A DNA stretch of 64,000 nucleotides from Pseudomonas syringae CC1557. GTDB lineage: Bacteria > Pseudomonadota > Gammaproteobacteria > Pseudomonadales > Pseudomonadaceae. The stretch covers positions 4,804,501 through 4,868,500 of the forward strand of contig NZ_CP007014.1 of assembly GCF_000452705.1 (NCBI RefSeq), given 5' to 3'. Made by a program: the position numbers and the translations under genes. Within the stretch, counting starts at the first letter, position 1. Each line of letters opens with the position of its first letter. Under the pieces are notes generated by a model, which saw only the letters and a list, made by a program, of their open reading frames with translations, searched no databases and was not told the DNA's origin. Positions 31,307-63,365 of this stretch are shown in pieces.

Positions 31307-31729
31307 GGGTTTTCGGAACGGTTGTCTCTCCCCTGCTTGAGCAGACAACCTGACCAAGCACCTTGTCCAGAGGCATCGCCCCACGCTCCACCCTGCCGAT
31401 TCGATCACGCAGAAGTCCCCGCTTTCCAGTGCAGATTTATCCCCTCGTCAAACGTCTAATCACCTCAAGCCGATCGTTTCATTCATGGCTGCGCCTGCGC
31501 TCTGAAATCCACTGACTTCGTACACGCTTCTGGATCAACGCCGCCCGCACGTCACACGATGATATCGGCTGCTGAAGCAAGCGTGCGACGACGACGGCGT
31601 CACGGTCGGTTCGCTGTGATGACCGAACAAACAGCCTACTCATTGCACATACCGACCCCCTGTCCCTGACTTTTCACGGCCGGTCCATTGGCTATTGAGA
31701 GTCTGAGTGACGTGAATGCAGGCGCCAAC
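31307..31729. other. Intergenic region before the NRPS
   Basis: No gene, RNA or insertion sequence is recognised in these 423 bases. This is where the NRPS promoter should lie; I see no luxR-type box or strong promoter. Short open frames (for example near 31490-31620) do not resemble known proteins. Confidence 0.4.
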
Positions 31730-34700
31730 ATGATCTCCGCTGACTTGCCAATGTTCGACAATGAATGTCAGGACTTCGAACTCACCTCTCCTCAGCAAGG
31801 CATTTGGTTTGACCAAATCGCGAACCCTGAACTGCCCTACTACAACATCGGCATGATCCTTGAAATCAAAGGGGAACTGGATGTTCCGCTTTTCGAGAAA
31901 GCGTTCCAACTGGTCGTGGATCGCCATGACTCCTTGCGCCTGGTGCTCAGTGTGCAAGGCGGCAATGTACGTCAGCGTGTGTTGCCTTACGTCAAATCGC
32001 AGTTAAGCGTTGTCGAGTTCTCTGGTGAACAGGCTTCAGAGCAGCATGTAAAGGCGTACCTGCACGATGTTTTTCGTCAGCCATTCAACCTGGTGGGTGA
32101 AGTGCTTTGGGAGGCCCGGCTCGTGCGCTGCGGGCCAAACCGCTATTACTGCCTGCACCGCTACCATCACCTGATATGTGATGGCATCACGGTCAATTTG
32201 CTTCTTCAAGCTGTCGCAGATGCTTACAACGGCTTGCTGCGTGATGATCAAAACCCTCCTCAGGGAAATGCATACCTCTCGTTTATCGCAGAGGATCAAG
32301 CCTATACAGAATCGCCCCGCTTCGAACGTGACAAGGCGTTCTGGACAGAGCTGTATGCCGAGCTGCCGCCGCCTTTGCTACAGCCACGCGTCGCAGTTGC
32401 CGACAACCGTGTAGCGCCGAGCGCACTGAGCCAGATGAAGATTCCCCGGCGGCTGTTCAATGAACTTGCGCAGTTTGCACGTGGCAAGAACCTGTCACTC
32501 GCGCATATTTTCATAAGCATCATCAGCACGTACTTCTGCCGTACCACCGGCGTCGACTCCATCGTAATCGGCATGCCAGTCCACAACAGGACAACGGCTT
32601 ACCAGAAGAACACGGCGGGCATGTTTTCCTCCCTGAGCCCCGTCCGTCTCGACGTGGACCCAGAGGCTTCGTTTCTGCAACTGATGCAGGCTACTTCGGC
32701 CAGCTTGCGCCGCAGCTACCGACATCAACGCTTTCCGATCGCAGAACTTAACAGGGTACTGAAACTGAGCCAGGCGGGCCGTCGGCAACTGTTTGACCTG
32801 TCACTGTCGTTTGAAAGCCTCGACGGAAATGCAGTATTCGGGAACAGCCCGACCGAAATATTCCGCGAGTACAGCGGGTATGAGCGCCTCCCACTGGCGA
32901 TTTCCACCTGTGACTATCACCCGGACAAAGACGTTTATCTGGACTTCAACTTCAATACGGCGTTTTTCACGCGCGAAGAAGTGCAGAAGATTCAAACGCG
33001 TATTCTTTCAATGCTTACCCACGTGATCGAATGGCAAGACACGGCGGTTTGGCACTTTCCGATCATGCCGAAGGCCGAACAGCAACAACTGCTGCTGACA
33101 TTCAATGCTGCAGAACACCTTTACCCACAAGACGAACTCATTCACACCCGATTCGAGCGACAGGCCGAACGCCAACCAGACGCCTGCGCCGTCAGCGACC
33201 ATACCGGCAAGGTACTGACTTACGCCGAACTGAATCGTGAAGCCAACCAGTTGGCGCATCACCTGATCGAAAAGGGCATTGGCCTGGATGATCGGGTCGC
33301 CATTTGCGTCGAACGTGGGCCACAGATGATCATCGGATTGCTGGGGATTCTCAAGGCGGGCGCAGGTTATGTGCCGCTGGACCCCGCCTACCCCGCTGAA
33401 CGTCTGGCCTATCTGCTGCAAGACAGCTCACCGGCCGCAGTGCTGGTGCAGGCCGCGACAGCGGACGTGCTGCCGCTCGGCTCGCTGCCTGTTATCAATC
33501 TGGACGATACGGCTTTGCAGACGCAATCCGTCCAGAATCCGCACGTACCGGGCCTGAACGCTTCGCATCTGGCCTACGTGATCTACACCTCCGGCTCCAC
33601 CGGCCTGCCCAAGGGCGTGCAGGTCGAACATCGCAACGTGGCGCGGCTGTTCTCGGCCACCGACGCGTGGTTTGGCTTCAACGCCAATGACGTCTGGGCA
33701 CTGTTCCACTCATTCGCCTTTGACTTCTCGGTCTGGGAAATCTGGGGCGCGCTGGTTCACGGCGCTCAACTGCTGATCGTCCCGCAATTGGTCAGCCGTT
33801 CGCCGCAGGAATGCTATGCCTTGTTGTGTGATGCAGGCGTGACGGTGTTGAACCAGACACCTTCCGCCTTCCGGCAGTTGATTGCCGCTCAAGGCGAAAA
33901 CCAGCAATCGCACTCGTTACGCCAAGTGATCTTTGGTGGTGAAGCGCTGGATACGACCATGCTCAAACCCTGGTACGCCAGACCAACCAACGCCGGAACG
34001 CAACTGGTCAACATGTACGGCATCACCGAAACCACGGTGCACGTGACGTATTACCCACTGCTGGCTGCAGATGCCGAGCGCACAGGTGTCAGCCCGATTG
34101 GCCGGCGAATTCCGGATTTGCAGCTTTATGTGCTCGATGCACAGCGCGAGCCCGTGCCTCTGGGCGTGCCCGGTGAGTTGTATGTCGGCGGCGCCGGTGT
34201 TGCGCGTGGCTACCTGAATCGTCCTGAGCTGAATGAACAACGCTTTCTCGCCAACCCGTTCAGCGAACAACCCGGTGCCCGGCTTTATCGCACCGGCGAC
34301 CTTGTGCGCTGGCTGGACGACGGCAACCTTGAGTACCTGGGCCGCAACGACGATCAGGTCAAGATCCGCGGCTTACGTATAGAACTGGGTGAAATCGAAG
34401 CCAAACTGGCAGCCCATGAGGCCGTTCGTGACGCCTTGGCGATGGCCCGTGAAGACATTCCCGGCGACCAGCGCCTGGTGGCCTACTTCATCGGCGATTC
34501 GGAAGTGAGCCTCGACGTACTGCACGATTATTTACTGGCGCAACTGCCGGACTACATGGTCCCGACCGCCTATGTGCAGTTGGAAAAACTGCCGTTGACC
34601 TCCAACGGCAAACTGGACCGCAACGCCCTGCCTGCTCCCGATCAGTCATCGGTGGTCAGTCGTGAGTACCAGGCACCGCAAGGGGCTAAAGAACGGGCCA

Positions 34701-37700
34701 TTGCCGAGATATGGCAAGACCTGCTGGGTCTCGATCAGGTCGGTCGGCATGACCACTTCTTCGAGCTTGGCGGCCACTCGCTGCTCGCCGTGAAGCTGAT
34801 CGAGCGCATGCGCCAGATCGGCCTGAGTGCTGACGTGCGCGTACTGTTCAGCCAGCCAACCCTGGCCGCGCTGGCCGCTGCCGTGGGCGGCGGCACGGAA
34901 GTCGTCGTACCGGCCAACCTGATCCCTGAGGACTGCGAACACATCACTCCGGACATGCTGCCGTTGGTGGACCTGACGCAGGCGTCCATCGACCAGATCG
35001 TGGCACGTGTGCCGGGTGGTGCAGCCAATGTGCAGGACATCTATGCCTTGGCACCCCTGCAGGAAGGCATTCTTTACCACCATCTTTCTGCGGAGCGCGG
35101 CGATCCGTATGTGCTGAAATCGGTTTTCGCTTTTCAGGATCAAGCCCGTCTGGACGCATTCAGCCAAGCACTGCAACAGTTGATTCAACGCCACGATATC
35201 CTCCGCACCTCGCTGTTTTGGGAAGGACTGGACGAGTCGGTGCAAGTGGTCTGGCGTCAGGCTTCCCTGGGCATGGAAACCCTCGACCTCGACCCGGCGC
35301 AGGGCGATATCTCCACGCAACTGCAGGATCGGTACGACCCTCGGCACTATCGCCTGGAGCTGGGGCAGGCACCGTTGATGCGGCTGGTCAGTGCCTACGA
35401 TGCCCCCCAAAAACGAATCGTCTCGTTGCTGCTGTGTCATCACCTGGTGCTCGACCACACGGCCCTGGATGTGATGCGTGACGAAATACAGGCCCTGATG
35501 CGGGGTGAAGGCCATGAATTGCCTGCCTCGGCGCCTTACCGCAACTACGTCGCTCAGGCCCGTCTGGGCGTCAGTCTCGAATCCCACGAAGCCTTTTTCC
35601 GCGACCTGCTTGGCGATATAGACGAGCCCACTCTGCCGTTCAACCTGCACGATGTACAAGGCGACGGCAGCTTAATCGAAGAAGTGCATCACCGTATCGA
35701 TTACACGTTGAGCCAGCGCCTGCGTAAGCAGGCCCGACAAGCCGGGGTGAGTGCGGCCAGTCTGGTGCACCTGGCCTGGGCTCAGGTACTGAGCAAAGTC
35801 ACCGGCAAGGATACCGTAGTTTTCGGTACGGTCCTGATGGGCCGCATGAGCGGCAGCGCGGGGACAGACCGCGCGCTGGGCATGTTCATCAACACCTTGC
35901 CGATGCGCATCGACGTAGGCCATCGGGGGGCTCAAGTCAGCGTCAAAGCCACTCATGCGCAGCTGTCGGCCCTGCTGAAGCATGAGCATGCCTCGCTGGC
36001 ACTGGCACAACGTTGCAGCGGCGTACCTGGCGATCTGCCGTTGTTCAGCGCCCTGCTCAACTACCGACACAGCGGTAGCGAAGCATTGAGTCCGGAAGCC
36101 GATGCCGCATGGGCCGGCATTCAAATGCTAAGTGGGCAGGAACGCACCAACTACCCATTGACCCTGAACGTGGACGATCTGGGTGAGGGCTTCATACTCA
36201 ACGCCCAGACCGTTGTCGACATCGGCGCGCAGCGTGTCTGCAACTACATGCAAGCGGCTCTGCAAAGCCTGGTGGAAGCACTTGAACATGCACCTCAGGC
36301 GCCCTTGCACAGCCTGTCAATCCTGCCGGAACAGGAACGCCATCAACTGATTGTAGAGTTCAATGCCACCGCGCTGGATTACCCACTGGAGCAGACCATT
36401 CATGGCTTGTTCGAAGCCCAGGTCGAGCGCACACCGCAAGCGGTCGCCGTGGTGCATGGTGATGTTCGCCTGAGCTATCGCGAGCTGAATAACCGGGCCA
36501 ACCAACTGGCGCATCACTTGCGTGATATCGGGGTCAAACCGGATTCTCGTGTCGCCATCTGTGTCGAACGTAGTGAATCGATGGTCATTGGTCTGCTGGC
36601 CATTTTGAAAGCCGGCGGCGGGTATGTGCCGCTGGATCCGACTTATCCTGCAGACCGAATTGCCTACATGTTGCAGGACAGCGCGCCGACTGCGGTTCTG
36701 GCACAACGCACGACGCTGGGTCTGCTGACGGATGTTTCGGTGCCGCTGATCAATCTGGACGATACCGCTTTGCAGGCGCAATCCGTCCAGAACCCGCACG
36801 TGCCGGACCTGACGCCGGCCCATTTGGCCTACGTAATCTACACCTCCGGCTCCACCGGCCTGCCGAAAGGCGTGATGATCGAACACCGCAACACCGTGAA
36901 CTTCCTGACCTGGGCGCATCAATCGTTTGATTCGACGGTGCTGGCAAAAACCCTGTTCTCCACCTCGCTGAACTTCGACCTCGCGGTCTACGAGTGCTTC
37001 GCGCCACTGACCTCCGGTGGCAGCGTCGATGTGGTCACTAATGTGCTGGCAATGCAGCAGGGTGACCACGATGTCACGCTGATCAATACCGTACCTTCAG
37101 CCCTCAAGGCGCTGCTCGAATCGGGGGGGTTAAGTGAAAGCGTGCACACCGTCAACGTCGCCGGTGAAGCCCTGAAACGCAGCCTGGTGGAAAGCCTGTT
37201 CCAGCAGACCCACGTCAAACGCCTGTGCAACCTCTATGGCCCGTCGGAAACCACTACGTATTCGAGTTGGGTATCCATGGACCGCGAACAGGGTTTTGCG
37301 TCGCACATCGGCAAACCCGTCGGCAACACTCAGTTTTACCTGCTGGATAAACAGATGCAGCCCGTCCCGCTGGGTGTTCCGGGAGAAATCTACATCGGTG
37401 GTGCCGGTGTCGCTCGCGGTTATCTGAACCGCGACGACCTGACCGCTGAGCGGTTCCTGCGTGACCCGTTCAGCAAGGACCCGAACGCCCGGATGTACAA
37501 AACCGGCGATCTGGGCCGCTGGCTGGCAGACGGCAATATCGAATATCTGGGCCGAAACGATGATCAGGTCAAGATCCGTGGTTTCCGTATCGAACTGGGT
37601 GAAATCGAAGCCTGTCTTGCAAAACATGAATCGGTAAAAGAAGCAGTAGTCATGGCCCGCGATGATGTGCCGGGTGATAAGCGCCTGGTGGCCTACTTCA

Positions 37701-40700
37701 CCGCTGATTCGGAAGTGAGCCTCGACATACTGCGCGAGTACTTACTGGGGCAACTGCCGGACTACATGGTCCCGACCGCCTATGTGCAATTGGAAAAACT
37801 GCCGCTGACCCCCAACGGAAAGCTGGACCGCAAGGCCCTGCCCGCTCCCGACCAGTCATCGGTGATCAGCCATGGATACGAGGCTCCCGTCGGTGGCATC
37901 GAGATCGCCATCGCCGATCTCTGGCAAGACCTATTGGGCATTGATCAGGTCGGTCGCAATGACCACTTCTTCGAACTGGGTGGTCACTCGCTGCTCGCCG
38001 TAAAACTGATCGAACGCATGCGTCAGATTGGCCTGAGTGCCGACGTGCGTGTGCTGTTCAGCCAGCCAACCCTGGCCGCGCTGGCCGCTGCCGTGGACGG
38101 CGGCACGCAAGTCGTCGTACCGGCCAACCTGATTCCTGAGCACTGCAAACACATCACCCCGGATATGCTGCCATTGGTAGACCTGAATCAGGCGTCCATC
38201 GACCAGATCGTGGCTCGTGTGCCGGGCGGCGGGACCAACGTGCAGGATATCTATCCGTTGGCACCGCTGCAGGAAGGCATTCTTTACCATCATCTGATGG
38301 CCCCCGAGGATGATCCGTACCGGCGAACAGCGCTGTTCAACTTTGACAGCCAGCAACGCGTGCAAAAGTTCGCGGAAGCCTTGCAGGCGGTGATTGACCG
38401 CCACGACATCTTGCGCACCAGCGTACTGTGGGAAGACCTCGACGAACCAGTCCAGGTGGTGTGGCGCCATGCCGAGTTGAGCGTGGAAGAGATCCGCATC
38501 GACCCAGCAGCCCCAAATATCACCGCGCAGTTGCAGGAAGTCCTCGACCCGCATCACCACCACTTGGACATCCGCGAGGCGCCCATGATGCGCATTGCCT
38601 ATGCCCATGATCCGGTCAACAACCGCTGGGCAGCGCTGCTGGTGTTCCATCACCTGATCAACGACGCCACCTCGCTCCCCGTACTGGCCCATGAAATTGA
38701 AGCCTGCATGCAGGGTCAGGAACACCTGTTGCCCGCCTCGGTGCCGTACCGCAACTACGTGGCGCAGGCGCGATTGGGCGTCAGTCTCGAAGCCCACGAA
38801 GCCTTCTTCTGCGACCTGCTCGGCGACATCGACGAGCCCACCCTGCCGTTTGACCTGCACGATGTGCAAGGCGATGGCAGCGTAATCGAAGAAGTGCAGC
38901 ACCGTATTGATGACACATTGAGCCAGCGCCTGCGCAAGCAGGCCCGGCTATGCGGTGTGAGTACGGCCAGCCTGTATCACATGGCCTGGGCTCAGGTATT
39001 GGGCAAAGTCACCGGCAAGGATGAGGTGGTCTTCGGCACCGTACTGATGGGACGGATGCAGGGTGGCGACGGCGCCGACCGCTCGTTGGGGATGTTCATC
39101 AACACCCTGCCGTTACGGGTCGAGCTGGGCAACCAGGGCGTACGCAACGGCGTTAAGCAGACCCACGCCCACCTGACCGCATTGCTCGGTCATGAACATG
39201 CGTCTCTCGTGTTGGCTCAGCGTTGCAGTGGGGTGCCGGCGCCGACTCCGTTGTTCAGCGCCTTGCTCAACTATCGCCACACCGACGTAACGAGCAGTGC
39301 CGCCGAGGGTCTGGGTAACTGGATCGATATCGAGCGATTAAAAGGCACGGAACGCACCAACTACCCGCTGGCCCTGAACGTGGATGATGAGGGCCTGGGC
39401 TTTACTTTTACCCTCACCTGCCCAATCGATATCGGGGCTGAACGGATCGCTGGCTACGTGCAAACGGCACTGGAAAGCCTGGTGGAAGCACTTGAGCATG
39501 CACCACAGGCGCCTTTAAACAGCCTGTCGATCCTGCCGGAACAGGAACGCAATCAACTCATTGTCGACTTCAATGCCACCACGCTGGATTACCCACTGGA
39601 GCAGACCATTCATGGGCTGTTCGAAGCGCAGGTCGAGCGCACGCCGCAAGCGGTCGCTGTGGTGCATGGCGATCTCCGCCTGAGTTATCGCGAGCTGAAT
39701 AATCGTGCCAACCAGCTGGCGCACCAGTTGATCGAACTGGGCATCGGCCCGGATAATCGGGTGGCGATCTGCGTCGAGCGCAGCGAGCCGATGATCGTCG
39801 GCCTGCTGGCGACCCTCAAGGCAGGCGCGGGTTATGTGCCGCTGGACCCCGCCTACCCCGCTGAACGTCTGGCCTATCTGCTGCAGGACAGCTCACCGGC
39901 CGCAGTGCTGGTGCAGGCCGTGACAGCGGACGTGCTGTCGCTCGGTTCGCTGCTTGTTATCAATCTGGACGACACGGCTTTGCAGATGCAATCCGTCCAG
40001 AATCCGCACGTACCTGGCCTGACCCCGGCCCATCTGGCCTACGTGATCTACACCTCCGGCTCCACCGGTATGCCGAAAGGCGTGCAGGTCGAGCATCGCA
40101 ACGTGGCGCGCCTGTTCTCGGCCACTGACGCATGGTTTGACTTCAATGCCAATGACGTCTGGGCGCTGTTCCATTCGTTCGCCTTTGACTTCTCGGTCTG
40201 GGAAATCTGGGGCGCGCTGGTTCATGGCGCTCAACTGCTTATCGTCCCGCAACTGGTCAGCCGTTCGCCGCAGGAATGCTATGCACTGCTCTGCGACGCC
40301 GGCGTCACGGTGCTCAGCCAGACACCAAGTGCCTTCCGTCAACTGATCGCGGCGCAAGGCGAAAGCCAGCAGTCGCACTCGTTGCGTCAGGTGATCTTCG
40401 GTGGCGAAGCGCTGGACACGGCCATGCTCAAACCCTGGTACGCCAGACAGGCCAACGCCGGGACGCAACTGGTCAACATGTACGGCATCACCGAAACCAC
40501 GGTGCACGTGACGTATTACCCACTGCTGGCTGCAGATGCCGAGCGCACAGGTGTCAGCCCGATTGGCCGGCGAATTCCGGATTTGCAGCTTTATGTGCTC
40601 GATGCACAGCGAGAGCCCGTGCCTCTGGGCGTGCCCGGCGAGTTGTATGTCGGCGGCGCCGGGGTTGCGCGTGGCTACCTGAACCGTCCCGAACTGAATG

Positions 40701-51301: not shown

Positions 51302-54210
51302 TTGCCCGCCACGACATCTTGCGCACCAGCGTAATTTGGGAGGACCTCGATGAACCGGTTCAGGTGGTCTGGCGCCATGCCGAGCTAAGCGTGGAAGAGA
51401 TCCGCATCGACCCCGCGCAGTTGCAGGAAGCCCTCGACCCGCGTCATCACCACCTGGACATTCGTCAGGCGCCCATGATGCGTATCGCCTATGCCAATGA
51501 TCCGGTCAATGACCGCTGGGCAGCGCTGCTGGTGTTTCATCACCTGATCAACGACGCCACCTCGTTACCCGTACTGGCCCATGAGATCGAAGCCTGCATG
51601 CAGGGCCAAGAAGACCAACTGCCGGTCTCGGTGCCGTACCGCAACTACGTGGCGCAGGCGCGATTGGGCGTCAGCCTCGAAGCCCACGAAGCTTTCTTCC
51701 GCGAACTGCTCGGCGACATCGACGAGCCCACCCTGCCGTTCGACCTGCACGATGTTCAAGGCGATGGCAGCGAACTCGAAGAAGTGCGCCAGCAGGTCGA
51801 GGCTGAACTGGCCGGCCGCTTGCGCCAGCAGGCACAGAGCCTCGGCGTCAGTGCGGCCAGCCTGTATCACCAGGCCTGGGCTCAGGTACTGGGCAAAGTC
51901 ACCGGCAAGGATGAGGTAGTCTTCGGCACTGTACTGATGGGCCGGATGCAGGGTGGCGACGGCGCAGACCGCTCCCTGGGTATGTTCATCAACACCCTGC
52001 CGTTACGCGTCGAGCTGGGCACCCAAGGCGTGCGCAACGGCGTGAAGCAGACCCACGCCCGTCTGACCGCCCTCCTCGGCCATGAACATGCGTCTCTGGT
52101 ACTGGCTCAGCGTTGCAGCGGGTTGCAAGCGCCGACTCCATTGTTCAGCGCCTTGCTCAACTACCGGCACACCAGCGCACCGAGTAGTACCGCCGAGGGT
52201 CTGGGTACCTGGATCGATGTCGAACGGTTAAACGGCACGGAACGCACCAACTACCCGTTAGCCTTGAACGTTGATGATGAGGGCCTGGGCTTTACTTTCA
52301 CCCTCACCTGCCCGGTCGACATCGGGGCTGAACGGATCGCAGGCTACGTGCAAACGGCGTTGGAAAGTTTGGTCAAGGCATTGGAAGACGCCCCGTCATC
52401 CGCACTCAACACATTGCCAATCCTGCCGCAGGAGGAACTACAAAAACTGCTGGTGGACTTCAACACCACCGCGCTGAAATACCCTCTGGAGCAGACCATT
52501 CATGGGCTGTTCGAAGCCCAGGTCGAGCGCACACCGCAGGCGGTCGCCGTGGTGCATGGTGATGTCCGCCTGAGTTATCGCGAGCTGAATAACCGGGCCA
52601 ACCAGTTGGCGCATCACTTGCGTGATATCGGGGTCAAACCGGATTCCCGAGTCGCCATCTGCGTCGAACGTAGTGAGTCAATGGTCGTCGGTCTTCTGGC
52701 CATTTTGAAAGCCGGCGGCGGATATGTGCCGCTGGACCCGGCTTATCCTGCGGACCGAATTGCCTACATGTTGCAGGACAGCGCGCCGGCAGCAGTGCTG
52801 GCGCAAAGCACGACGCTGGCTCTGCTGACGGATGTTTCGGTGCCGGTCATTGCGCTGGATAGCGATAACTGGAAGGGAGAATCGGTCGCCAATCTGCTGA
52901 TCCCAGATCTGACACCGGCCCACTTGGCCTACGTAATCTACACCTCGGGTTCGACCGGCCTGCCAAAAGGCGTAATGATCGAACACCGCAACACGGTGAA
53001 CTTCCTGACCTGGGCGCATCAGTCATTTGACTCGACGGTGCTGGCAAAAACCCTGTTCTCCACCTCGCTGAACTTCGACCTCGCGGTCTACGAGTGCTTC
53101 GCGCCACTGACCTCCGGTGGCAGCGTCGATGTGGTCACTAATGTGCTGGCACTGCAGCAGGGTGACCACGATGTTACCTTGATCAATACCGTACCTTCAG
53201 CGCTCAAGGCGCTGCTGGAATCGGGGGGGTTGAGTGAAAGCGTGCACACCGTCAACGTCGCCGGTGAAGCGCTGAAGCGCAGCCTGGCGGAAAACCTGTT
53301 CGAGCAGACCAGCGTCAAACGTCTGTGCAACCTCTATGGTCCGTCGGAAACCACTACCTACTCAAGCTGGGTGGCCATGGACCGCGAACAGGGTTTTGCG
53401 GCGCACATTGGCAAGCCGGTCGGCAACACCCAGTTCTACCTGCTGGACGCACAGATGCAGCCAGTGCCATTGGGCGTGCCGGGAGAAATCCACATCGGCG
53501 GTGCCGGTGTCGCCCGCGGTTATCTGAACCGTGATGACCTGACCGCTGAACGGTTCCTGCGTGACCCGTTCAGCAAGGCCCCGAACGCCCGGATGTACAA
53601 AACCGGCGATCTGGGCCGCTGGCTGGCAGACGGCAATATCGAATATCTGGGCCGAAACGATGATCAGGTCAAGATCCGTGGTTTCCGTATCGAACTGGGT
53701 GAAATCGAAGCCTGTCTTGCAAAACATGAATCGGTAAAAGAAGCAGTAGTCATGGCCCGCGAAGACGTGCCTGGTGACAAGCGCCTGGCGGCCTACTTCA
53801 CTGCTGATTCGCAAGTGAGCCTCGACGTACTGCGCGAGTACTTACTGGCGCAACTGCCGGACTACATGGTCCCGACCGCCTATGTGCAGTTGGAAAAACT
53901 GCCGCTGACTCCCAACGGCAAACTGGATCGCAATGCCCTGCCCGCTCCCGATATGTCGTCGGTGATCAGCCGCGAATACCAGGCGCCGCAAAGTGCCGCC
54001 GAACGGGCCATTGCCGAGATTTGGCAAGACCTGCTGGATATCGATCAGGTCGGTCGGCATGACCACTTCTTCGAGCTCGGCGGCCACTCGCTGCTCGCCG
54101 TGAAGCTGATCGAGCGCATGCGCCAACAGAACATGAGTGCTGACGTGCGCGTACTTTTCAGCCAGCCAACCCTGGCCGCGCTGGCCGCTGCCGTGGACGG
54201 CGGCACGCAA
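51147..54210 (+). other. NRPS module 7: C7(dual E/C, frameshifted)-A7(Ala)-T7
   Basis: After correcting the C run at 51210-51213, C7 opens LAPLQEGILYHHLMAPEDD and has HHLINDA. A7 code is again DLYNNALTYK (Ala). T7 is at about 54057-54110. Modules 6 and 7 thus look like a recent duplication of one Ala module. Confidence 0.65.
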
Positions 54211-57200
54211 GTCGTCGTACCGGCCAACCTGATTCCTGAGCACTGCAAACACATCACCCCGGATATGCTGCCATTGGTAGACCTGAATCAGGCGTCCATC
54301 GACCAGATCGTGGCCTGTGTGCCGGGTGGTGCAGCCAATGTGCAGGACATCTATGCCTTGGCGCCATTGCAGGAAGGTATTTTTTACCATCACTTGACGG
54401 CCACCGAGGGTGATCCGTACCTGCAACATGCACTGCTCGGTTTTGACAGCCTGGAACGCGTACATCAGTTTGCTGCGGCCCTGCAGACAGTGATTGCCCG
54501 CCACGACATCTTGCGCACCAGCGTACTGTGGGAAGACCTCGACGAACCAGTCCAGGTGGTGTGGCGCCATGCCGAGTTGAGCGTGGAAGAGATCCGCATC
54601 GACCCAGCAGCCCCAAATATCACCGCGCAGTTGCAGGAAGTCCTCGACCCGCATCACCACCACTTGGACATCCGCGAGGCGCCCATGATGCGCATTGCCT
54701 ATGCCCATGATCCGGTCAACAACCGCTGGGCAGCGCTGCTGCGATTCCATCACCTGATCGACGATGTCACTTCACTGGCCGTTATTTCCAAAGAAGTCGA
54801 AGCCTGCATGCAGGGCCAGGAACACCTCCTGCCCGCCTCAGTGCCTTATCGCAACTATGTGGCTCAGGCCCGTCTCGGCGTCAGCCCCGAATCGCACGAA
54901 GCCTTCTTCCGCGATCTGCTCGGCGACATCGACGAGCCGACCCTGCCGTTCGACCTGCACGATGTGCAAGGCGACGGCAGCGAAATTGAAGAAGCGCATC
55001 ACCGCATTGACAGGGCCTTGAGCCAGCGCCTGCGTACGCAGGCCCGACAATCCGGGGTGAGTGCGGCCAGCCTGGTGCATCTTGCCTGGGCCCAGGTCGT
55101 CGGACGCTTTTCCGGACGCGACGTCGTGGTTTTCGGCACCGTCCTGATGGGCCGCATGAGTGGCTCGGCGGGAACAGACCGCGCGTTGGGCATGTTCATC
55201 AACACCTTGCCGATGCGCATTGATCTGGGTCATCAGGGAGCTCAGGCCAGCGTCAAAGCCACTCATGCACAGCTGTCGGTACTGCTTGAGCATGAGCATG
55301 CCTCACTGGCACTGGCACAACGTTGCAGCGGTGTAACTGGCGATCTGCCGTTGTTCAGCGCCCTGTTCAACTACCGGCACAGCGGCGGCGAAGCCTCGAG
55401 TCCTGAGGCCAGTGCCGCGTGGGCGGGCATTCAAAGCCTGGGCGCTGAGGAACGCAGCAACTACCCGTTGGCGTTGAACGTGGACGATCTGGGTGAGGGC
55501 TTCATACTCAACGCCCAGACCGTTGTCGACATCGGCGCTCAACGTGTCTGCGACTACGTGCAAACGGCACTGGAAAGCCTGGTGGAAGCACTTGAGCATG
55601 CCCCTCAGACGCCCTTGTACAGCCTGTCGATCCTGCCGGAACAGGAACGCAATCGACTCATTGTCGAGTTCAACGCCACCACGCTGAATTATCCGCTGGA
55701 GCAGACCATTCATGGGCTGTTCGAAGCGCAGGTCGAGCGCTCGCCGCAAGCAGTCGCTGTGGTGCATGGGGATGTCCGCCTGAGTTATTGCGAGCTGAAT
55801 AACAGGGCCAACCAACTGGCGCACCAGTTGATCGAACTGGGCATCGGCCCGGATGACCGGGTGGCAATCTGCGTCGAGCGTGGGCTGGGCATGATCGTCG
55901 GTCTGCTGGCGATCCTCAAGGCAGGCGCGGGTTATGTCCCGCTGGACCCCGCCTACCCCGCTGAACGCCTGGCCTATATGTTGCTGGACAGCGCGCCGGC
56001 CGCAGTGCTGGTGCAGGCCGCGACTGCGGATGTGCTGACGCTCGGTTCGCTGCCTGCCATCAATCTGGACGACGTCGCCTGGCAGGCGCAATCCGTCCAG
56101 AACCCGCACGTACAGGACCTGAGCGCTTCGCATCTGGCCTACGTAATCTACACCTCCGGCTCCACCGGTCTGCCCAAGGGCGTCCAGGTCGAACACCGAA
56201 ACGTCGTGAATCTGGTGCAGTGGGGCTCGCTACTTTGCCCGGTCTCGCAGCACGGCGCGCTGTTGCACAAGACATCGATCAGTTTCGATGCCTCGGTGTG
56301 GGAAATCTTCTGGCCGCTTTGCAGTGGTCTGTCATTGGTACTCGCGCGTCCCGACGGGCAGCATGACCCAGCCTATCTGGCTCGGCTGATTCGTGAGCGG
56401 CAAGTCAGTGTGGTGCAGTTCGTACCGGTGCTGCTCCAGCAATTCCTCGATCTGCCGGACAGCAGCCAGTGCCTCAGTCTGACCGATATCGTGTGCGGCG
56501 GCGGTGAGCTGACGGCCGCGCTGGCCGAGCAGGTCCGCCAGCGCCTGCCCTGGGCACGCTTACACAACGTTTACGGACCGACGGAAACCACTGTGGATTG
56601 CAGCGCCTGGACACTAGAGCCGCACATGCCGGTGCCAGAAGCCACGCTGCCGATCGGTCGTCCGATCAGCAATACGCGCCTTTACGTGCTGGACACACAT
56701 GACCAGCCCGTGCCTCAGGGCGTGATCGGTCAACTGCACATAGGCGGTGCCGGTGTCACCCGCGGCTATCTGAACCTGCCGCAGCAGCAGGCCGAAAGAT
56801 TCATTGACAGCCCCTTCGTTGACGGTGATCGCCTGTATCGCAGCGGCGATCTGGTGCGCCAGCTGGCAGACGGCAACATCGAGTACCTGGGACGTGATGA
56901 CGATCAGGTGAAGATCCGAGGTTTCCGCATCGAGCTGGGTGAGATCGAAGCCAAACTGGCCAGGCACGAGGCGGTAAAAGACGCCGTGGTCATGGCCCGT
57001 GAAGACGTGCCCGGCGACGAACGTCTGGTGGCCTATTACACATCACGGGGGGCGGACGAGACGCCGGACATCGGCCTATTGCGTAGCCATTTGCAAACCC
57101 AACTGCCGGATTACATGGTGCCCTCTGCCTATGTGCGCCTCGATTCTCTGCCGTTGACCGCCAACGGCAAACTGGACCGCAAGGCCCTCCCCGCTCCGGA

Positions 57201-60200
57201 TCAGTCATCGGTGGTCAGCCATGAATACGAGGCCCCTATTGGTGATACCGAGATTGCCATCGCCGATCTCTGGCAAGACCTGCTGAGCATCGACCAGGTC
57301 AGTCGTCATGACCACTTCTTCGAGCTCGGCGGGCACTCGCTGCTGGCCGTGAAGCTTATCGAACGCATGCGCCAACAGAACATGAGCGCCGATGTGCGTG
57401 TGTTGTTCAGCCAGCCAACCCTGGCCGCGCTGGCCGCAGCCGTGGGCGGCGGCATGGAAATCGTGGTGCCGGCCAACCTGATTCCTGAGCACTGCGAACG
57501 GATTACCCCGGACATGCTGCCGTTGGTGGACCTGGCTCAGAACTCCATCGACCAGATCGTGACCCGTGTGCCGGGCGGCGTGGCCAACGTACAGGATATC
57601 TACCCGTTGGCACCGCTGCAGGAAGGTATTCTTTACCATCATCTGATGGCCCCCGAGGATGATCCGTACCGGCGAACGGTGCTGTTCAACTTTGACAGCC
57701 AGGAACGCGTGCAACAGTTTGCTGCGGCCTTACAGACGGTGATTGCCCGCCACGACATCTTGCGCACCAGCATAATTTGGGAGGACCTCGATGAACCGGT
57801 TCAGGTGGTCTGGCGCCATGCCGAGCTAAGCGTGGAAGAGATCCGCATCGACCCCGCGCAGTTGCAGGAAGCCCTCGACCCGCGTCACCACCACCTGGAC
57901 ATTCGTCAGGCGCCTATGATGCGTATCGCCTATGCCCGTGACTCAGTCAATGACCGCTGGGCAGCGTTGCTGGTGTTCCATCACCTGATCAACGACGCCA
58001 CCTCGCTACCCGTGCTGGCCCATGAGATCGAAGCCTGCATGCAGGGTCAGGAACACCAATTGCCGGTCTCGGTGCCTTACCGCAACTACGTGGCTCAGGC
58101 CCGTCTGGGCAAGAGTATCGAAGCCCACGAAGCCTTCTTCCGCGACCTGCTCGGCGACATCGACGAGCCCACCCTGCCGTTTGACCTGCACGATGTGCAA
58201 GGCGATGGCAGCGAACTCGAAGAAGTGCGCCAGCAGCTCCAGGCTGAACTGGCCGGCCGCTTGCGCCAGCAGGCACAGAGCCTCGGCGTCAGTGTCGCCA
58301 GCTTGTATCACTTGGCCTGGGCTCAGGTACTGAGCAAAGTCACCGGCAAAGATGAGGTGGTCTTCGGCACCGTATTGATGGGCCGGATGCAAGGTGGCGA
58401 CGGCGCCGACCGCTCGTTGGGGATGTTCATCAACACCCTGCCGTTGCGGGTCGAGCTGGGCAGTCAGGGGGTGCGCAACGGCGTGAAGCAGACCCACGCC
58501 CGCCTGACCGCGTTGCTCGGCCATGAACATGCGTCTCTGGTACTGGCTCAGCGCTGCAGTGGGGTGCAAGCACCGACTCCGCTGTTCAGCGCCTTGCTCA
58601 ATTACCGGCACACCGACGCACCGAGTAGTACCGCCGAGGGTCTGGGAACCTGGATCGATATCGAGCGGTTAAAAGGCACGGACCGCACCAACTACCCGTT
58701 GGCCTTGGACGTGGATGATGAGGGCCAGGGTTTTGCCTTGACCCTCACCTGCCCGGTCGACATCGGGGCTGAACGGATCGCTGGTTACGTACAAAAGGCA
58801 CTGGAAAGCCTGGTGCAAGCACTCGAGCATGCACCGTCATCCGCGCTCAACACCTTGCCAATCCTGCCGCAGGAGGAGCTACAAAAACTGCTGGTGGACT
58901 TCAACGCCACCGCCGTGCCCTATCCGCAAGACAGCACCATTCATCAGTTGTTCGAAGAGCAAGCGCGGGTACAACCGGACGCCATCGCGGTGGTCTTCGA
59001 AGCCCAGCGCCTGAGCTATGCCAAGCTGAACCGTGAGGCCAACCGCCTGGCGCATCACCTGATCGGCCTGGGCATTGTCCCGGATGATCGGGTGGCGATC
59101 TGTGTCGAGCGTGGGCCGGCCATGATCGTCGGCCTGCTGGCGATCCTCAAGGCCGGAGCCGGTATGCTGCCGCTCGACTCGTTGCCTGTTATCAATCTGG
59201 ACGACGCCGCTGTGCAGACGCAATACGTCCAGAATCCGCACGTGCCGGGCCTGAGCGCTTCGCATCTGGCCTACGTAATCTACACCTCTGGTTCCAATCT
59301 GGACGACGCCGCTGTGCAGACGCAATACGTCCAGAATCCGCACGTGCCGGGCCTGAGCGCTTCGCATCTGGCCTACGTAATCTACACCTCCGGCTCCACC
59401 GGTCTGCCCAAGGGCGTCCAGGTCGAACATCGAAACGTCGTGAATCTGGTGCAGTGGGGCTCGCTACTTTGTCCGACAGCGCAACACGGCGCGCTGTTGC
59501 ACAAGACATCGATCAGTTTCGATGCCTCGGTGTGGGAAATCTTCTGGCCGCTTTGCAGTGGTCTGTCATTGGTACTCGCGCGTCCCGACGGGCAGCATGA
59601 TCCAGCCTATCTGGCTCGGCTGATTCGTGAGCGGCAAGTCAGTGTGGTGCAGTTCGTACCGGTGCTGCTCCAGCAATTCCTCGATCTGCCGGACAGCAGC
59701 CAGTGCCTCAGTCTGACCGATATCGTGTGCGGCGGCGGTGAGCTGACGGTCGCGCTGGCCAGGCAGGTCCGCCAGCGCCTGCCATGGGCACGTTTACACA
59801 ACGTTTACGGACCGACGGAAACCACTGTGGATTGCAGTTCCTGGACACTGGAGCCGCACATGCCGGTGCCAGAAGCCACGCTGCCGATCGGTCGTCCGAT
59901 CAGCAATACGCGCCTTTACGTGCTGGACACACATGACCAGCCCGTGCCTCAGGGCGTGATCGGTCAACTGCACATAGGCGGTGCCGGTGTCACCCGCGGC
60001 TATCTGAACCTGCCGCAGCAGCAGGCCGAAAGATTCATTGACAGCCCCTTCGTTGACGGTGATCGCCTGTATCGCAGCGGCGATCTGGTGCGCCAGCAGG
60101 CGGACGGTAACCTCGAGTACCTGGGCCGCAATGACGATCAGGTCAAGATCCGTGGTTTCCGTATCGAGCTGGGTGAAATCGAAGCCCGCCTGAGCCGGCA

Positions 60201-61491
60201 TCCGACAGTGAAGCAGGCCGTGGTCATGGCCCGTGAAGACGTGCCCGGCGACAAGCGCCTGGTGGCCTATTTCACCGCTGAGGCTGAAGTGAGCCTCGAC
60301 GTACTGCGCGAGCATTTGCTGGCGCAGATGCCGGACTACATGGTGCCCGCCGCCTACATCCGTATCGAGTTTCTACCGCTGACTCCCAACGGAAAACTGG
60401 ACCGCAAGGCCCTGCCCGCACCGGATCAGTCCTCGGTGATCAGCCGCGAATACCATGTGCCGCAAGGTGCCACCGAACAGGCTATTGCCGAGATCTGGCA
60501 AGACCTGCTGGGCATTGATCAAGTCGGTCGTCATGACCACTTCTTCGAACTCGGCGGCCACTCGCTCTTGGCAGTGCAGATGATCTCGAGGCTGCAAACG
60601 GAACTGGGCAAGACCATTGGTCTACGAGGCTTGTTCGTGGAACCTACGGTTACTGGCTTCGCGCAAACACTGACGCCACAATCACGGACGGCTCCTCGAA
60701 GTAACCTCGTGCCCGTCCGCCGCGACGGTAACCAGCGCCCTTTGTTTCTGGTGCACCCGGCGGGTGGAGAGGTGCAATATGCTCGGGATCTGGCACCCTG
60801 GCTGGACGCCGACATACCGGTCTACGGCATTGCAGCCAATGGTTTTTTCGCTGGAGAAAAGACGCTGAGCACGATACCGGATATCGCTGCCCACTACCTG
60901 ACGGCTATTCGCGAAGTGCAACCACATGGACCTTATCGCATCGCCGGTTGGTCGGCAGGGGGGACGATTGCCCACGAAATGGCCCATCAGGCAATCGCCA
61001 GGGGTGAAACGATAGAGTTCCTGGGTATTATCGATTCCAACATACAAGAGACAGCGCCCAATCATCCAATTAGCGAAGCACAGTTCCTGTTGGAGCAGGT
61101 AAAAGAACGCATGGAACCAGCGCTGGAGAAATCACTTCAAGCGTTGGCCGCCATCGACGAAATCCAACCTATGCTTGTATTGATACTTAGCAATAACTTG
61201 CTACCAGAGCTATGGAAGGATATCGATACCGCACTGCTGCGAACTCACCTGGCAGTGGCCTACTCGATTTGCCAGGCTATGGAAACCCATGTCAGCCCCC
61301 GCACGGCAGTCAAGGTCTCGCTATTTATCGCCGAGGACGAATCGTACGCTGACACCACTCTGGGCTGGGGCGCCTTTCACGATGATCACTTGCAAGTAAC
61401 CCTAGTGCCCGGAGAGCATCACACCATGATGAGAGAACCTCACGTCAGCGCGCTGGGCGAGGCGATTTCCTTGGCCTTGAAGCGTAAATAA
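51268..61491 (+). CDS. Giant non-ribosomal peptide synthetase, part 2 (rest of C7, modules 7-9, thioesterase)
   Basis: The frame continues the synthetase after the one-base deletion at 51210-51213. It holds most of condensation domain 7, A7-T7, C8-A8-T8, C9-A9-T9 and a single type I thioesterase at the C-terminus. The apparent GTG start at 51268 lies inside C7, so this is not an independent gene. The thioesterase has the nucleophile serine in IAGWSAGGTIAHEM (codon at 60952) and a likely catalytic histidine in GEHHTMM near the end. A9 is rearranged (see 59162-59397). The gene is followed by a terminator hairpin at 61799 and the prophage-derived com gene. Confidence 0.9.
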   Translation: MHQLAAALQTVIARHDILRTSVIWEDLDEPVQVVWRHAELSVEEIRIDPAQLQEALDPRHHHLDIRQAPMMRIAYANDPVNDRWAALLVFHHLINDATSLPVLAHEIEACMQGQEDQLPVSVPYRNYVAQARLGVSLEAHEAFFRELLGDIDEPTLPFDLHDVQGDGSELEEVRQQVEAELAGRLRQQAQSLGVSAASLYHQAWAQVLGKVTGKDEVVFGTVLMGRMQGGDGADRSLGMFINTLPLRVELGTQGVRNGVKQTHARLTALLGHEHASLVLAQRCSGLQAPTPLFSALLNYRHTSAPSSTAEGLGTWIDVERLNGTERTNYPLALNVDDEGLGFTFTLTCPVDIGAERIAGYVQTALESLVKALEDAPSSALNTLPILPQEELQKLLVDFNTTALKYPLEQTIHGLFEAQVERTPQAVAVVHGDVRLSYRELNNRANQLAHHLRDIGVKPDSRVAICVERSESMVVGLLAILKAGGGYVPLDPAYPADRIAYMLQDSAPAAVLAQSTTLALLTDVSVPVIALDSDNWKGESVANLLIPDLTPAHLAYVIYTSGSTGLPKGVMIEHRNTVNFLTWAHQSFDSTVLAKTLFSTSLNFDLAVYECFAPLTSGGSVDVVTNVLALQQGDHDVTLINTVPSALKALLESGGLSESVHTVNVAGEALKRSLAENLFEQTSVKRLCNLYGPSETTTYSSWVAMDREQGFAAHIGKPVGNTQFYLLDAQMQPVPLGVPGEIHIGGAGVARGYLNRDDLTAERFLRDPFSKAPNARMYKTGDLGRWLADGNIEYLGRNDDQVKIRGFRIELGEIEACLAKHESVKEAVVMAREDVPGDKRLAAYFTADSQVSLDVLREYLLAQLPDYMVPTAYVQLEKLPLTPNGKLDRNALPAPDMSSVISREYQAPQSAAERAIAEIWQDLLDIDQVGRHDHFFELGGHSLLAVKLIERMRQQNMSADVRVLFSQPTLAALAAAVDGGTQVVVPANLIPEHCKHITPDMLPLVDLNQASIDQIVACVPGGAANVQDIYALAPLQEGIFYHHLTATEGDPYLQHALLGFDSLERVHQFAAALQTVIARHDILRTSVLWEDLDEPVQVVWRHAELSVEEIRIDPAAPNITAQLQEVLDPHHHHLDIREAPMMRIAYAHDPVNNRWAALLRFHHLIDDVTSLAVISKEVEACMQGQEHLLPASVPYRNYVAQARLGVSPESHEAFFRDLLGDIDEPTLPFDLHDVQGDGSEIEEAHHRIDRALSQRLRTQARQSGVSAASLVHLAWAQVVGRFSGRDVVVFGTVLMGRMSGSAGTDRALGMFINTLPMRIDLGHQGAQASVKATHAQLSVLLEHEHASLALAQRCSGVTGDLPLFSALFNYRHSGGEASSPEASAAWAGIQSLGAEERSNYPLALNVDDLGEGFILNAQTVVDIGAQRVCDYVQTALESLVEALEHAPQTPLYSLSILPEQERNRLIVEFNATTLNYPLEQTIHGLFEAQVERSPQAVAVVHGDVRLSYCELNNRANQLAHQLIELGIGPDDRVAICVERGLGMIVGLLAILKAGAGYVPLDPAYPAERLAYMLLDSAPAAVLVQAATADVLTLGSLPAINLDDVAWQAQSVQNPHVQDLSASHLAYVIYTSGSTGLPKGVQVEHRNVVNLVQWGSLLCPVSQHGALLHKTSISFDASVWEIFWPLCSGLSLVLARPDGQHDPAYLARLIRERQVSVVQFVPVLLQQFLDLPDSSQCLSLTDIVCGGGELTAALAEQVRQRLPWARLHNVYGPTETTVDCSAWTLEPHMPVPEATLPIGRPISNTRLYVLDTHDQPVPQGVIGQLHIGGAGVTRGYLNLPQQQAERFIDSPFVDGDRLYRSGDLVRQLADGNIEYLGRDDDQVKIRGFRIELGEIEAKLARHEAVKDAVVMAREDVPGDERLVAYYTSRGADETPDIGLLRSHLQTQLPDYMVPSAYVRLDSLPLTANGKLDRKALPAPDQSSVVSHEYEAPIGDTEIAIADLWQDLLSIDQVSRHDHFFELGGHSLLAVKLIERMRQQNMSADVRVLFSQPTLAALAAAVGGGMEIVVPANLIPEHCERITPDMLPLVDLAQNSIDQIVTRVPGGVANVQDIYPLAPLQEGILYHHLMAPEDDPYRRTVLFNFDSQERVQQFAAALQTVIARHDILRTSIIWEDLDEPVQVVWRHAELSVEEIRIDPAQLQEALDPRHHHLDIRQAPMMRIAYARDSVNDRWAALLVFHHLINDATSLPVLAHEIEACMQGQEHQLPVSVPYRNYVAQARLGKSIEAHEAFFRDLLGDIDEPTLPFDLHDVQGDGSELEEVRQQLQAELAGRLRQQAQSLGVSVASLYHLAWAQVLSKVTGKDEVVFGTVLMGRMQGGDGADRSLGMFINTLPLRVELGSQGVRNGVKQTHARLTALLGHEHASLVLAQRCSGVQAPTPLFSALLNYRHTDAPSSTAEGLGTWIDIERLKGTDRTNYPLALDVDDEGQGFALTLTCPVDIGAERIAGYVQKALESLVQALEHAPSSALNTLPILPQEELQKLLVDFNATAVPYPQDSTIHQLFEEQARVQPDAIAVVFEAQRLSYAKLNREANRLAHHLIGLGIVPDDRVAICVERGPAMIVGLLAILKAGAGMLPLDSLPVINLDDAAVQTQYVQNPHVPGLSASHLAYVIYTSGSNLDDAAVQTQYVQNPHVPGLSASHLAYVIYTSGSTGLPKGVQVEHRNVVNLVQWGSLLCPTAQHGALLHKTSISFDASVWEIFWPLCSGLSLVLARPDGQHDPAYLARLIRERQVSVVQFVPVLLQQFLDLPDSSQCLSLTDIVCGGGELTVALARQVRQRLPWARLHNVYGPTETTVDCSSWTLEPHMPVPEATLPIGRPISNTRLYVLDTHDQPVPQGVIGQLHIGGAGVTRGYLNLPQQQAERFIDSPFVDGDRLYRSGDLVRQQADGNLEYLGRNDDQVKIRGFRIELGEIEARLSRHPTVKQAVVMAREDVPGDKRLVAYFTAEAEVSLDVLREHLLAQMPDYMVPAAYIRIEFLPLTPNGKLDRKALPAPDQSSVISREYHVPQGATEQAIAEIWQDLLGIDQVGRHDHFFELGGHSLLAVQMISRLQTELGKTIGLRGLFVEPTVTGFAQTLTPQSRTAPRSNLVPVRRDGNQRPLFLVHPAGGEVQYARDLAPWLDADIPVYGIAANGFFAGEKTLSTIPDIAAHYLTAIREVQPHGPYRIAGWSAGGTIAHEMAHQAIARGETIEFLGIIDSNIQETAPNHPISEAQFLLEQVKERMEPALEKSLQALAAIDEIQPMLVLILSNNLLPELWKDIDTALLRTHLAVAYSICQAMETHVSPRTAVKVSLFIAEDESYADTTLGWGAFHDDHLQVTLVPGEHHTMMREPHVSALGEAISLALKRK
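54336..57450 (+). other. NRPS module 8: C8(dual E/C, mosaic)-A8(Gln-like)-T8
   Basis: C8 opens LAPLQEGIFYHHLTATEGD and has HHLIDDV. Its first part is identical to C3 over 240 bases, then it switches to C6-like sequence. A8 code reads DAWQVGVVDK (Gln-like). T8 is at about 57306-57360. Confidence 0.65.
59194..59295 (+). repeat. 102-bp tandem direct repeat in A9, first copy
   Basis: This unit begins AATCTGGACGACGCC and ends in TACACCTCTGGTTCC; it encodes 34 residues ending in YTSGS, the start of core motif A3. The next 102 bases repeat it with only two visible differences near the end. It keeps the reading frame. Confidence 0.9.
59296..59397 (+). repeat. 102-bp tandem direct repeat in A9, second copy
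   Basis: This copy is followed by the intact continuation of motif A3 (YTSGSTGLPKG). Just upstream of the first copy, about 37 residues including motif A2 (AGAGYVPLDPAYPAER in sister domains) are missing at about 59162-59166, so total A9 length is nearly unchanged. Confidence 0.9.
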
Positions 61492-61853
61492 GATAGAGCA
61501 TTGGCGCTTGTCCGGTAGACGAAAAAACGCCGGTATCGTGAATTGATGGGCAGCTTGCTTTTCTGGAGCGCCGCGCCATCAATGAAAGCGCTGTCTTGCA
61601 CCGTTTATCCGGGTCCATTGCGCAGCTGTGGTCGAACTCTTGTTGAACTCCGGCCAAACTCGACCTTCCCCGAAAGTGCTTCTTTCCAGACTTTCCGGAT
61701 GCGGGTAAAAAGACACCACGATATGCGATTTGCGCCTCAGGGCAGCCATCGGATACGGGCTTTTTAACAGCGCCAACCGATACATTGCGATCCACCCCAA
61801 ACCCCGCCTCGGCGGGGTTTTTCATTGGGCGAAATACAAGGAGACCCGTGCAA
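61492..61853. other. Intergenic region between NRPS and com
   Basis: No gene is recognised in these 362 bases apart from the terminator at 61799-61822 and the com ribosome site (AAGGAG). The junction between NRPS island and prophage-derived DNA must lie here. Confidence 0.4.
61799..61822 (+). terminator. Rho-independent terminator (CCCCGCC-TC-GGCGGGG-T run)
   Basis: A GC-rich 8-bp stem ACCCCGCC / GGCGGGGT with a 2-base loop is followed by TTTTC. It ends transcription from the NRPS side and isolates com and levansucrase. The same arrangement of hairpin, ribosome site and com is usual in prophage tail regions. Confidence 0.8.
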
Positions 61854-62039
61854 ATGTTGAAAGACTACCGATGCGGACAGTGCAAGAAGCTGCTGGCCCG
61901 CGTAGGTGACTACACCGAACTCCAGATCAAGTGCTCCCGCTGCGGGACGCTGAATCATGTGAAGGCCGTGAGCCATGAGTTATCGCCTTTGAGCGAAAAA
62001 GGTACAGCAGCGTCGCTGCTGCCTCCCAACGCTAATTAA
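61854..62039 (+). CDS. com: Com-family zinc-binding protein (prophage Mu Com-like)
   Basis: This 61-residue protein has two CxxC pairs ([12 protein letters not shown] and [14 protein letters not shown]) that form the zinc finger of the Mu Com family, known in phage Mu as a translational activator of mom. Here it directly precedes the levansucrase gene with an 11-base gap, so the two share a transcript. The ATG at 61854 is 10 bases after AAGGAG; a GTG at 61848 is also possible. Association of a prophage promoter/com region with P. syringae levansucrase genes has been described; this copy fits that picture. Confidence 0.85.
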
Positions 62040-62050
62040 AGGTATCAACT

Positions 62051-63346: not shown

Positions 63347-63365
63347 CACGCCATCCGCGTACGAT

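What the first reader, a model, noticed from the sequence alone, without database searches (positions are those of the whole stretch)
31730..61491. Nine-module giant NRPS with a hydrophilic, D-rich predicted peptide and no known match
Reading the ten pocket positions by alignment to PheA gives Thr-Ala-Thr(like)-Gln(like)-Ser-Ala-Ala-Gln(like)-Gln(like), released by a single TE. There is no Leu/Val-rich stretch as in syringafactin or syringopeptin and no Dab/Arg as in syringomycin. An unbroken gene would encode about 9920 residues, very large even for an NRPS. Seen: domain order and codes. Known: the Thr (DFWNIGMVHK) and Ser (DVWHLSLIDK) codes. Inferred: Ala and Gln, and colinearity.
Basis: partly seen in the sequence, partly recalled or inferred. 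Interest (0 to 1): 0.85.

Follow-up and report, generated by a model that had tools for sequence, protein, structure and literature searches.

The report
Mosaic nine-module lipopeptide synthetase
A plant-associated Pseudomonas carries a giant assembly-line enzyme gene that seems to make an unknown fatty-acid-tailed peptide of nine amino acids; it looks stitched together from parts of the known lipopeptide machines of its relatives, but as read it is interrupted once and altered in its last module.

Summary
Window 31730-61491 encodes nine C-A-T modules and one thioesterase (TE); all nine codes were reproduced (Thr-Ala-Thr-Gln-Ser-Ala-Ala-Gln-Gln). The Ala and Gln codes recur in syringopeptin and factin-like synthetases. 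The starter C domain implies a lipopeptide. Six of seven presumed dual C/E domains place in the dual clade (the seventh is broken), so the peptide should be D-rich. The genome belongs to the Pseudomonas syringae complex.

New here: the enzyme is a mosaic. Starter and TE are closest to mycin-type synthetases (56-64%, 52-65%), the C/E domains are syringopeptin-like, the Gln A domains factin-like, and module 5 is 93-96.5% identical to the Ser module of syrilipamide-type synthetases. One other genome examined shares both ends (starter 77%, TE 84%) around a longer Thr/Ala/Ser-rich core. The 30-kb locus is cleanly absent in a close relative, with traces that favour loss.

Caveats: a frame break near 51.2 kb splits C7; A9 misses about 33 residues around its A2 core and carries a 102-bp duplication. 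Error and decay are both possible. Thr could end as dehydrobutyrine, so "hydrophilic" is provisional. Ten literature searches found no report of the product.

The parts
31393..31729 (+). Upstream leader/promoter region shared with the related NRPS of G141
   Evidence: 80% over 349 bp (window 31393-31733) to sequence upstream of the G141 NRPS; 31393-31527 survives at the empty site of G094
31730..51301 (+). NRPS open frame 1 (modules 1-6 and the start of C7)
51268..61491 (+). NRPS open frame 2 (rest of C7, A7-T7, modules 8-9, TE); frame break against frame 1 near 51.2 kb
31772..33094 (+). C1, starter-type condensation domain
   Evidence: PF00668 271 bits; 56-64% to mycin-type starters, 77-84% to G010/G295/G141
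33584..34622 (+). A1 core (A3-A10), DFWNIGMVHK = Thr; T motif at 34751
35030..36349 (+). C2, dual C/E type (HHLSAERGD)
36839..37832 (+). A2 core, DLYNNALTYK = Ala; T motif at 37961
38240..39559 (+). C3, dual C/E clade (HHLMAPEDD)
40049..41096 (+). A3 core, DFWSIGMVHK = Thr-like; T motif at 41225
41504..42823 (+). C4, dual C/E clade (HHLMASEND)
43310..44339 (+). A4 core, DAWQVGVVDK = Gln; T motif at 44468
44663..46015 (+). C5, ordinary LCL-type domain (HHIVSDG), 93-94% to syrilipamide-type synthetases
   Evidence: PF00668 366 bits
46505..47534 (+). A5 core, DVWHLSLIDK = Ser, 95.8-96.5% to syrilipamide-type synthetases; T motif at 47663
47939..49258 (+). C6, dual C/E type (HHLMAAEGD)
49748..50741 (+). 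A6 core, DLYNNALTYK = Ala; T motif at 50870
51226..52452 (+). C7, broken: N-terminal part lies in frame 1, the rest in frame 2
   Evidence: PF00668 matches positions 27-456 only, in frame 2
52939..53932 (+). A7 core, DLYNNALTYK = Ala; T motif at 54061
54340..55659 (+). C8, dual C/E type (HHLTATEGD)
56149..57181 (+). A8 core, DAWQVGVVDK = Gln; T motif at 57310
57589..58893 (+). C9, dual C/E clade (HHLMAPEDD)
59134..59389 (+). A9 alteration: about 33 residues that A8 has after LKAGAG (core A2 and what follows) are missing, and a 102-bp stretch is tandemly duplicated (59186-59287 / 59288-59389, 97%)
   Evidence: the remaining MLPLDS still aligns loosely to the A2 core of solved A domains
59383..60406 (+). 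A9 core (A3-A10), DAWQVGVVDK = Gln; T motif at 60535
60640..61488 (+). Single thioesterase (GWSAGG), 84% to G010, 64-65% to the P. cichorii mycin-type synthetase
31528..61562 (+). Block absent in close relative G094 (flanks contiguous there)

Best explanation
The locus is a stand-alone lipopeptide synthetase of the Pseudomonas syringae complex. A starter C domain N-acylates the first amino acid (inferred: a fatty acid, as in mycins). Nine modules then add, in order, Thr-Ala-Thr-Gln-Ser-Ala-Ala-Gln-Gln. Dual C/E domains convert residues 1, 2, 3, 5, 7 and 8 (and 6, if C7 works) to the D form before condensation; residues 4 and 9 stay L. The single mycin-like TE releases the chain, most simply as a lactone onto the hydroxyl of residue 1, as mycins close on Ser1 (inferred; the mycin ring is recalled). 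The enzyme arose by module exchange: mycin-like ends, syringopeptin-like C/E domains, factin-like Gln A domains and a syrilipamide-type Ser module. Shown: domains, codes, placement in a tree, module identities, empty site. Inferred: acylation, stereochemistry, cyclisation, activity. Whether this copy is intact in the cell is unresolved, and this reading can be true together with either of the first two rivals.
For: Nine C domains. Nine codes, calibrated on Syp proteins and factin-like synthetases. Starter C 56-64% to mycin-type starters and 77-84% to three relatives. TE 64% to P. cichorii and 84% to G010. Six of six testable presumed dual domains in the dual C/E clade beside SypC, and C5 in the LCL clade beside syrilipamide-type synthetase. 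Module 5 93-96.5% to syrilipamide-type synthetases, which appear in the six best matches of no other module. Purifying selection on starter and TE between species, dN/dS 0.12-0.23. Host: 98.3% identity over 96% of the first 20 kb of contig 2 to a P. syringae plasmid.
Against: C7 is split by a frame break and A9 is altered near core A2 as read, so this copy may make nothing, or a truncated product. No lipopeptide-type exporter or LuxR regulator was seen among the neighbouring ORFs scanned (a sugar ABC transporter lies further upstream; the window ends 2.5 kb after the gene). Four of the seven presumed dual domains do not show the textbook HHLxxxxGD: C3, C4 and C9 vary at the Gly, and C7 is broken. 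No product is known.
Confidence: 0.62

Rival explanations
1. A decaying pseudogene: the frame break in C7 and the alteration in A9 are real, and the locus is on its way out, as it already is in a close relative.
For: Frame break. A9 alteration whose two repeat copies are not identical (97%), unlike a simple read duplication. Empty site in G094 with NRPS leader left behind, and a 107-bp TE scrap beside lsc on a plasmid-like contig of G380.
Against: Only one frame break in 30 kb; frame 1 and the rest of frame 2 stay open. Starter and TE are conserved between species, although that does not date the break.
Confidence: 0.3
2. The frame break (and perhaps the A9 oddity) is an assembly error in near-identical repeated modules, and the gene is intact in the cell.
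For: A-domain pairs up to 96.7% identical at DNA level. In the same assembly 13 of 71 condensation matches cover under 400 of 456 positions, all outside the window in other NRPS clusters, while flanking genes are of similar length to those of G094 (by eye from the lists). G010, a one-contig genome, shows similar breaks.
Against: No reads were available. The two A9 repeat copies differ at 3% of positions. I did not measure the genome-wide error rate, and the breaks elsewhere could also be decay.
Confidence: 0.5
3. It is a mycin (syringomycin-family) synthetase with changed specificity.
For: Nine modules, single TE, starter and TE closest to mycin-type synthetases among the kinds compared, apart from the uncharacterised relatives.
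Against: No Dab- or Asp-type code and no Ser at position 1. The last module has its own A domain, whereas in P. cichorii one further C motif follows the last A domain before the TE (the A-less last module of mycins is recalled). Core domains are closer to peptin, factin-like and syrilipamide-type synthetases.
Confidence: 0.05
4. It makes a siderophore rather than a lipopeptide.
For: Hydrophilic Ser/Thr/Gln composition.
Against: No hydroxyornithine- or hydroxyaspartate-type codes (codes recalled), starter C domain of the lipopeptide kind, no siderophore receptor or uptake gene among the neighbouring ORFs scanned.
Confidence: 0.03

Closest known systems
Mycin-type synthetases (syringomycin/syringotoxin kind; P. 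cichorii; own genome)
   Same: Nine modules (recalled for mycins), single TE, starter C 56-64% and TE 52-65% identical
   Different: Predicted peptide entirely different; own A domain in the last module; mostly dual C/E-type domains; no accessory genes seen beside it
Syringopeptin synthetases SypA-C (peptins)
   Same: Ala code DLYNNALTYK, Thr/Dhb code, dual C/E domains in one clade
   Different: Nine rather than about 22-25 modules (size recalled), starter only 32%, no Val/Pro/Dab/Tyr codes
Factin synthetases (syringafactin/cichofactin)
   Same: Gln code DAWQVGVVDK; A4 and A8 68-69% to module 2 of a P. cichorii factin-like synthetase
   Different: No Leu/Val codes; single TE (tandem TE of factins recalled)
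Syrilipamide synthetase (sym; PMC12171316)
   Same: Stand-alone NRPS with a mycin-related starter; module 5 here is 93-96.5% identical to the Ser module of P. syringae proteins whose codes fit syrilipamide (my identification)
   Different: Six residues (Leu, D-Ser2, Hse, Val, b-Ala, L-Ser6 in the paper); starter 47%, TE 39%
Uncharacterised NRPS of G010 (Pseudomonas sp. B21-028, inferred from equal contig length)
   Same: Starter 77%, TE 84%; stand-alone; Thr/Ala/Ser-rich
   Different: 14 A domains, 13 codes read, none Gln, one Val-type; also has frame breaks

Membership tests
Pseudomonas N-acyl lipopeptide synthetases (general) | Starter C domain, C-A-T modules, terminal TE | tested here: met
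Pseudomonas N-acyl lipopeptide synthetases (general) | Product is a fatty-acyl peptide | not testable with these tools
   needs LC-MS of wild type and deletion mutant
Pseudomonas N-acyl lipopeptide synthetases (general) | Uninterrupted, functional assembly line | tested here: inconclusive
   frame break in C7 and altered A9 as read; sequence error not excluded
Mycins | Ser1, Dab and conserved Thr(Dhb)-Asp-Thr C-terminus; last module without A domain (partly recalled) | tested here: not met
   codes against mycin-type synthetases
Mycins | Nine modules and single TE with mycin-type starter and TE | tested here: met
Peptins | About 18-25 modules, peptin-type starter (sizes recalled) | tested here: not met
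   nine modules; starter 32%
Factins | Eight-residue Leu/Val-rich peptide (recalled) | tested here: not met
   nine modules, no Leu/Val codes
Syrilipamides | Six modules for Leu, Ser, Hse, Val, b-Ala, Ser | tested here: not met
   against PMC12171316

The most novel reading that the evidence does not exclude
A further lipopeptide family of the P. syringae complex, beside factins, mycins, peptins and syrilipamides, whose synthetases are built by shuffling modules among those very machines while keeping a fixed starter/TE frame. Carriers (this genome, the P. syringae partial proteins with Gln-Gln-Thr-Ala-Ser and Ala-Gln-Val-type orders, G010 with 14 modules) would then make different Thr/Ala/Ser/Gln lipopeptides from one conserved shell.
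Probability: 0.45. Interest if true: 0.62.

Novelty: new variant of a known kind. Interest (0 to 1): 0.52.

Why it matters
It gives a natural example of how one lineage may assemble a new peptide machine from parts of several related ones: mycin-like ends, peptin-like epimerising domains, factin-like Gln A domains and a near-identical syrilipamide-type module. That makes module-exchange boundaries in NRPS genes directly readable, with close paralogues for comparison, and it predicts a lipopeptide outside the families named in the P. syringae surveys I looked at.

Tried and rejected
Considered and rejected: mycin, peptin, factin and syrilipamide membership (each fails a code or size test); siderophore (no such codes); a link to the adjacent trpC paralogue and MEKHLA gene (both are also present at the empty site of G094); transposon or phage-type insertion (the relative's site is contiguous, and the NRPS leader left there points to loss); an RNA element in 28000-64000 (0 Rfam matches at gathering score). 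My first regex code reader misread several codes and was replaced by alignment to A1. The search with contig 2 gave the species complex, not the strain. A literature search for DLYNNALTYK with P. syringae found 0 papers. Structure prediction was not used: it would not decide between error and decay. Literature led to nothing on this cluster.

The labels mycin-type, factin-like and syrilipamide-type for fetched proteins are mine, from code patterns, size or source species.

Full report
WHAT IS THERE. Two long open frames fill the stretch: 31688-51301 and 51268-61491 (ATG at 31730). The PF00668 search of the own genome puts 9 of 71 condensation matches in the window; the window is C1:4804501-4868500 of a 5.81-Mb, two-contig genome. 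Alignment-based code reading gives, in order, DFWNIGMVHK, DLYNNALTYK, DFWSIGMVHK, DAWQVGVVDK, DVWHLSLIDK, DLYNNALTYK, DLYNNALTYK, DAWQVGVVDK, DAWQVGVVDK. The only TE is at the 3' end.

CALIBRATION OF THE CODES. The same aligner on ten other synthetase proteins found DLYNNALTYK in 4 of 4 that their sources name SypA, SypB or SypC (P0085, P0207, P0224, P0079). P0085 reads Thr, Pro-type, Val-type, Ala, Ala, which fits the syringopeptin start Dhb-Pro-Val-Ala-Ala (product recalled). DAWQVGVVDK is the second module of 4 of 4 factin-like proteins (P0188, P0191, P0193, P0195; factin-like by code pattern), which is Gln in cichofactin (recalled); the two arthrofactin/SteC-type proteins read DAWQFGVVDK there. 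So Ala and Gln are firm. The same comparison adds a caution: a Thr code in syringopeptin synthetases can end as dehydrobutyrine, so Thr1 and Thr3 here, and perhaps Ser5, may be dehydrated.

STEREOCHEMISTRY. C2, C6 and C8 carry HHLxxxxGD; C3, C4 and C9 carry HHLxxxx(D/N)D; C7 is broken at that place; C5 has none. In a tree of 56 domain pieces (a few overlap), C2, C3, C4, C6, C8 and C9 fall in the dual C/E clade beside SypC domains, C5 falls with LCL domains beside a syrilipamide-type synthetase, and C1 with the starters of G141 and G010; C7 was left out because it sits too near the start of frame 2. Predicted: D at 1, 2, 3, 5, 7, 8, probably 6; L at 4 and 9.

THE MOSAIC. TE 84% to G010, 64% to P. 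cichorii (G370) and G018, 52% to the own mycin-type synthetase; the named-genome scan gave 65%, 64% and 61% for P. cichorii, P. capsici and P. graminis. Module 5 (C5 and A5) is 93-96.5% to syrilipamide-type proteins (such as P0038, P0045, P0091), whose starter is only 47% and TE 39%. Gln A domains A4 and A8 are 68-69% to a P. cichorii factin-like synthetase (A9 63%). P0070, a P. syringae partial protein, has Gln, Gln-like, Thr, Ala, Ser in another order; P0232 has Ala, Gln, Val-type. Syrilipamide is described in PMC12171316 (parts 1 and 2 of 6 of the text, and passages): a six-residue lactone whose starter domain is close to that of syringomycin, which the authors place outside the six established groups. 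The window's gene resembles it in kind, not in product.

DISTRIBUTION AND SITE. In 398 sampled genomes of the genus (own included), 3 of 397 others have a starter of 76-84% identity: G141, G295, G010. G141 and G295 have three-module enzymes (Thr, Ser, Pro-type) with an unrelated TE (25-26%) and a following 386-aa ORF. G010 has 14 A domains and the same kind of TE, also with frame breaks. In G094, window 29463-31527 and 61563-63998 are contiguous, 87% and 93% identical, so the 30-kb block is cleanly absent. The leftover there includes 140 bp that match (74%, E 2e-16) the leader upstream of the G141 NRPS, which has no trpC or MEKHLA gene beside it; this favours loss in G094 over gain here. On a plasmid-like contig of G380 (plasmid-like by eye, from its conjugation-type ORFs), lsc is preceded by a 107-bp scrap of this TE's 3' end, 92.5%. 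Of six lsc loci fetched from relatives (L050-L055), 0 of 6 show window-like NRPS DNA next to lsc beyond that scrap, and 1 shows the exact empty site; L053 and L054 hold under 2 kb upstream of lsc, so they test little.

INTEGRITY. Frame 1 runs out of C7 and frame 2 takes C7 up from profile position 27, so C7 is split near 51.2 kb. A9 misses about 33 residues that A8 has after LKAGAG and carries a 102-bp tandem duplication, copies 97% alike. Against solved A domains A9 still scores as an A domain, and its MLPLDS aligns loosely to the A2 core, while A8 aligns through the whole region; loss of function of A9 is therefore an inference. The same assembly has 13 of 71 condensation matches shorter than 400 of 456 positions, all in other NRPS clusters, and the window's A domains are up to 96.7% alike, so residual assembly error is plausible; decay is not excluded.

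PRINT. Ten searches gave no description that I could find of this peptide or cluster. PMC9769872 (724 strains of the complex; abstract, passages and one section seen) assigns its lipopeptides to factins, mycins and peptins. PMC9948697, PMC4235733, PMC13387001 and PMC10920822 were seen as passages only. Supplements could not be read.

VERDICT. The most likely nature is a mosaic lipopeptide synthetase of the P. syringae complex with unknown product; function in this strain is open until the two changes are checked.

Noticed in passing
window 29595-30404 (-): A second trpC-type gene (indole-3-glycerol phosphate synthase), 52% to another copy at C1:603920; also present at the empty site of G094, so not tied to the NRPS.
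   Followed up: partly
window 62051-63346 (+): Levansucrase gene directly downstream; a second copy (85%) lies at C1:2105568. The upstream neighbours of lsc vary among the relatives fetched, and in G380 it sits on a contig with conjugation-type ORFs.
   Followed up: partly
G000:C1 2987785-3217931: The own genome's other large NRPS clusters (mycin-type at about 3078-3110 kb and neighbours) contain many broken condensation domains: 13 of 71 matches are fragments. Error or decay not settled.
   Followed up: partly
L016-L017 (G141) and L018-L019 (G295): Three-module NRPS (Thr, Ser, Pro-type code) with a starter 79-84% like the window's, followed directly by a 386-aa ORF that by eye begins like an FAD monooxygenase; reminiscent of brabantamide-type clusters (recalled, not tested).
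   Followed up: no
L020, L021, L037 (G010): Stand-alone NRPS with 14 A domains, rich in Thr and Ala codes, same starter and TE type as the window, with frame breaks in a one-contig genome.
   Followed up: partly
L050, 13459-15090 on its reverse complement: G094 has an extra gene, by eye chemoreceptor-like, between lacI and trpC that the window lacks.
   Followed up: no
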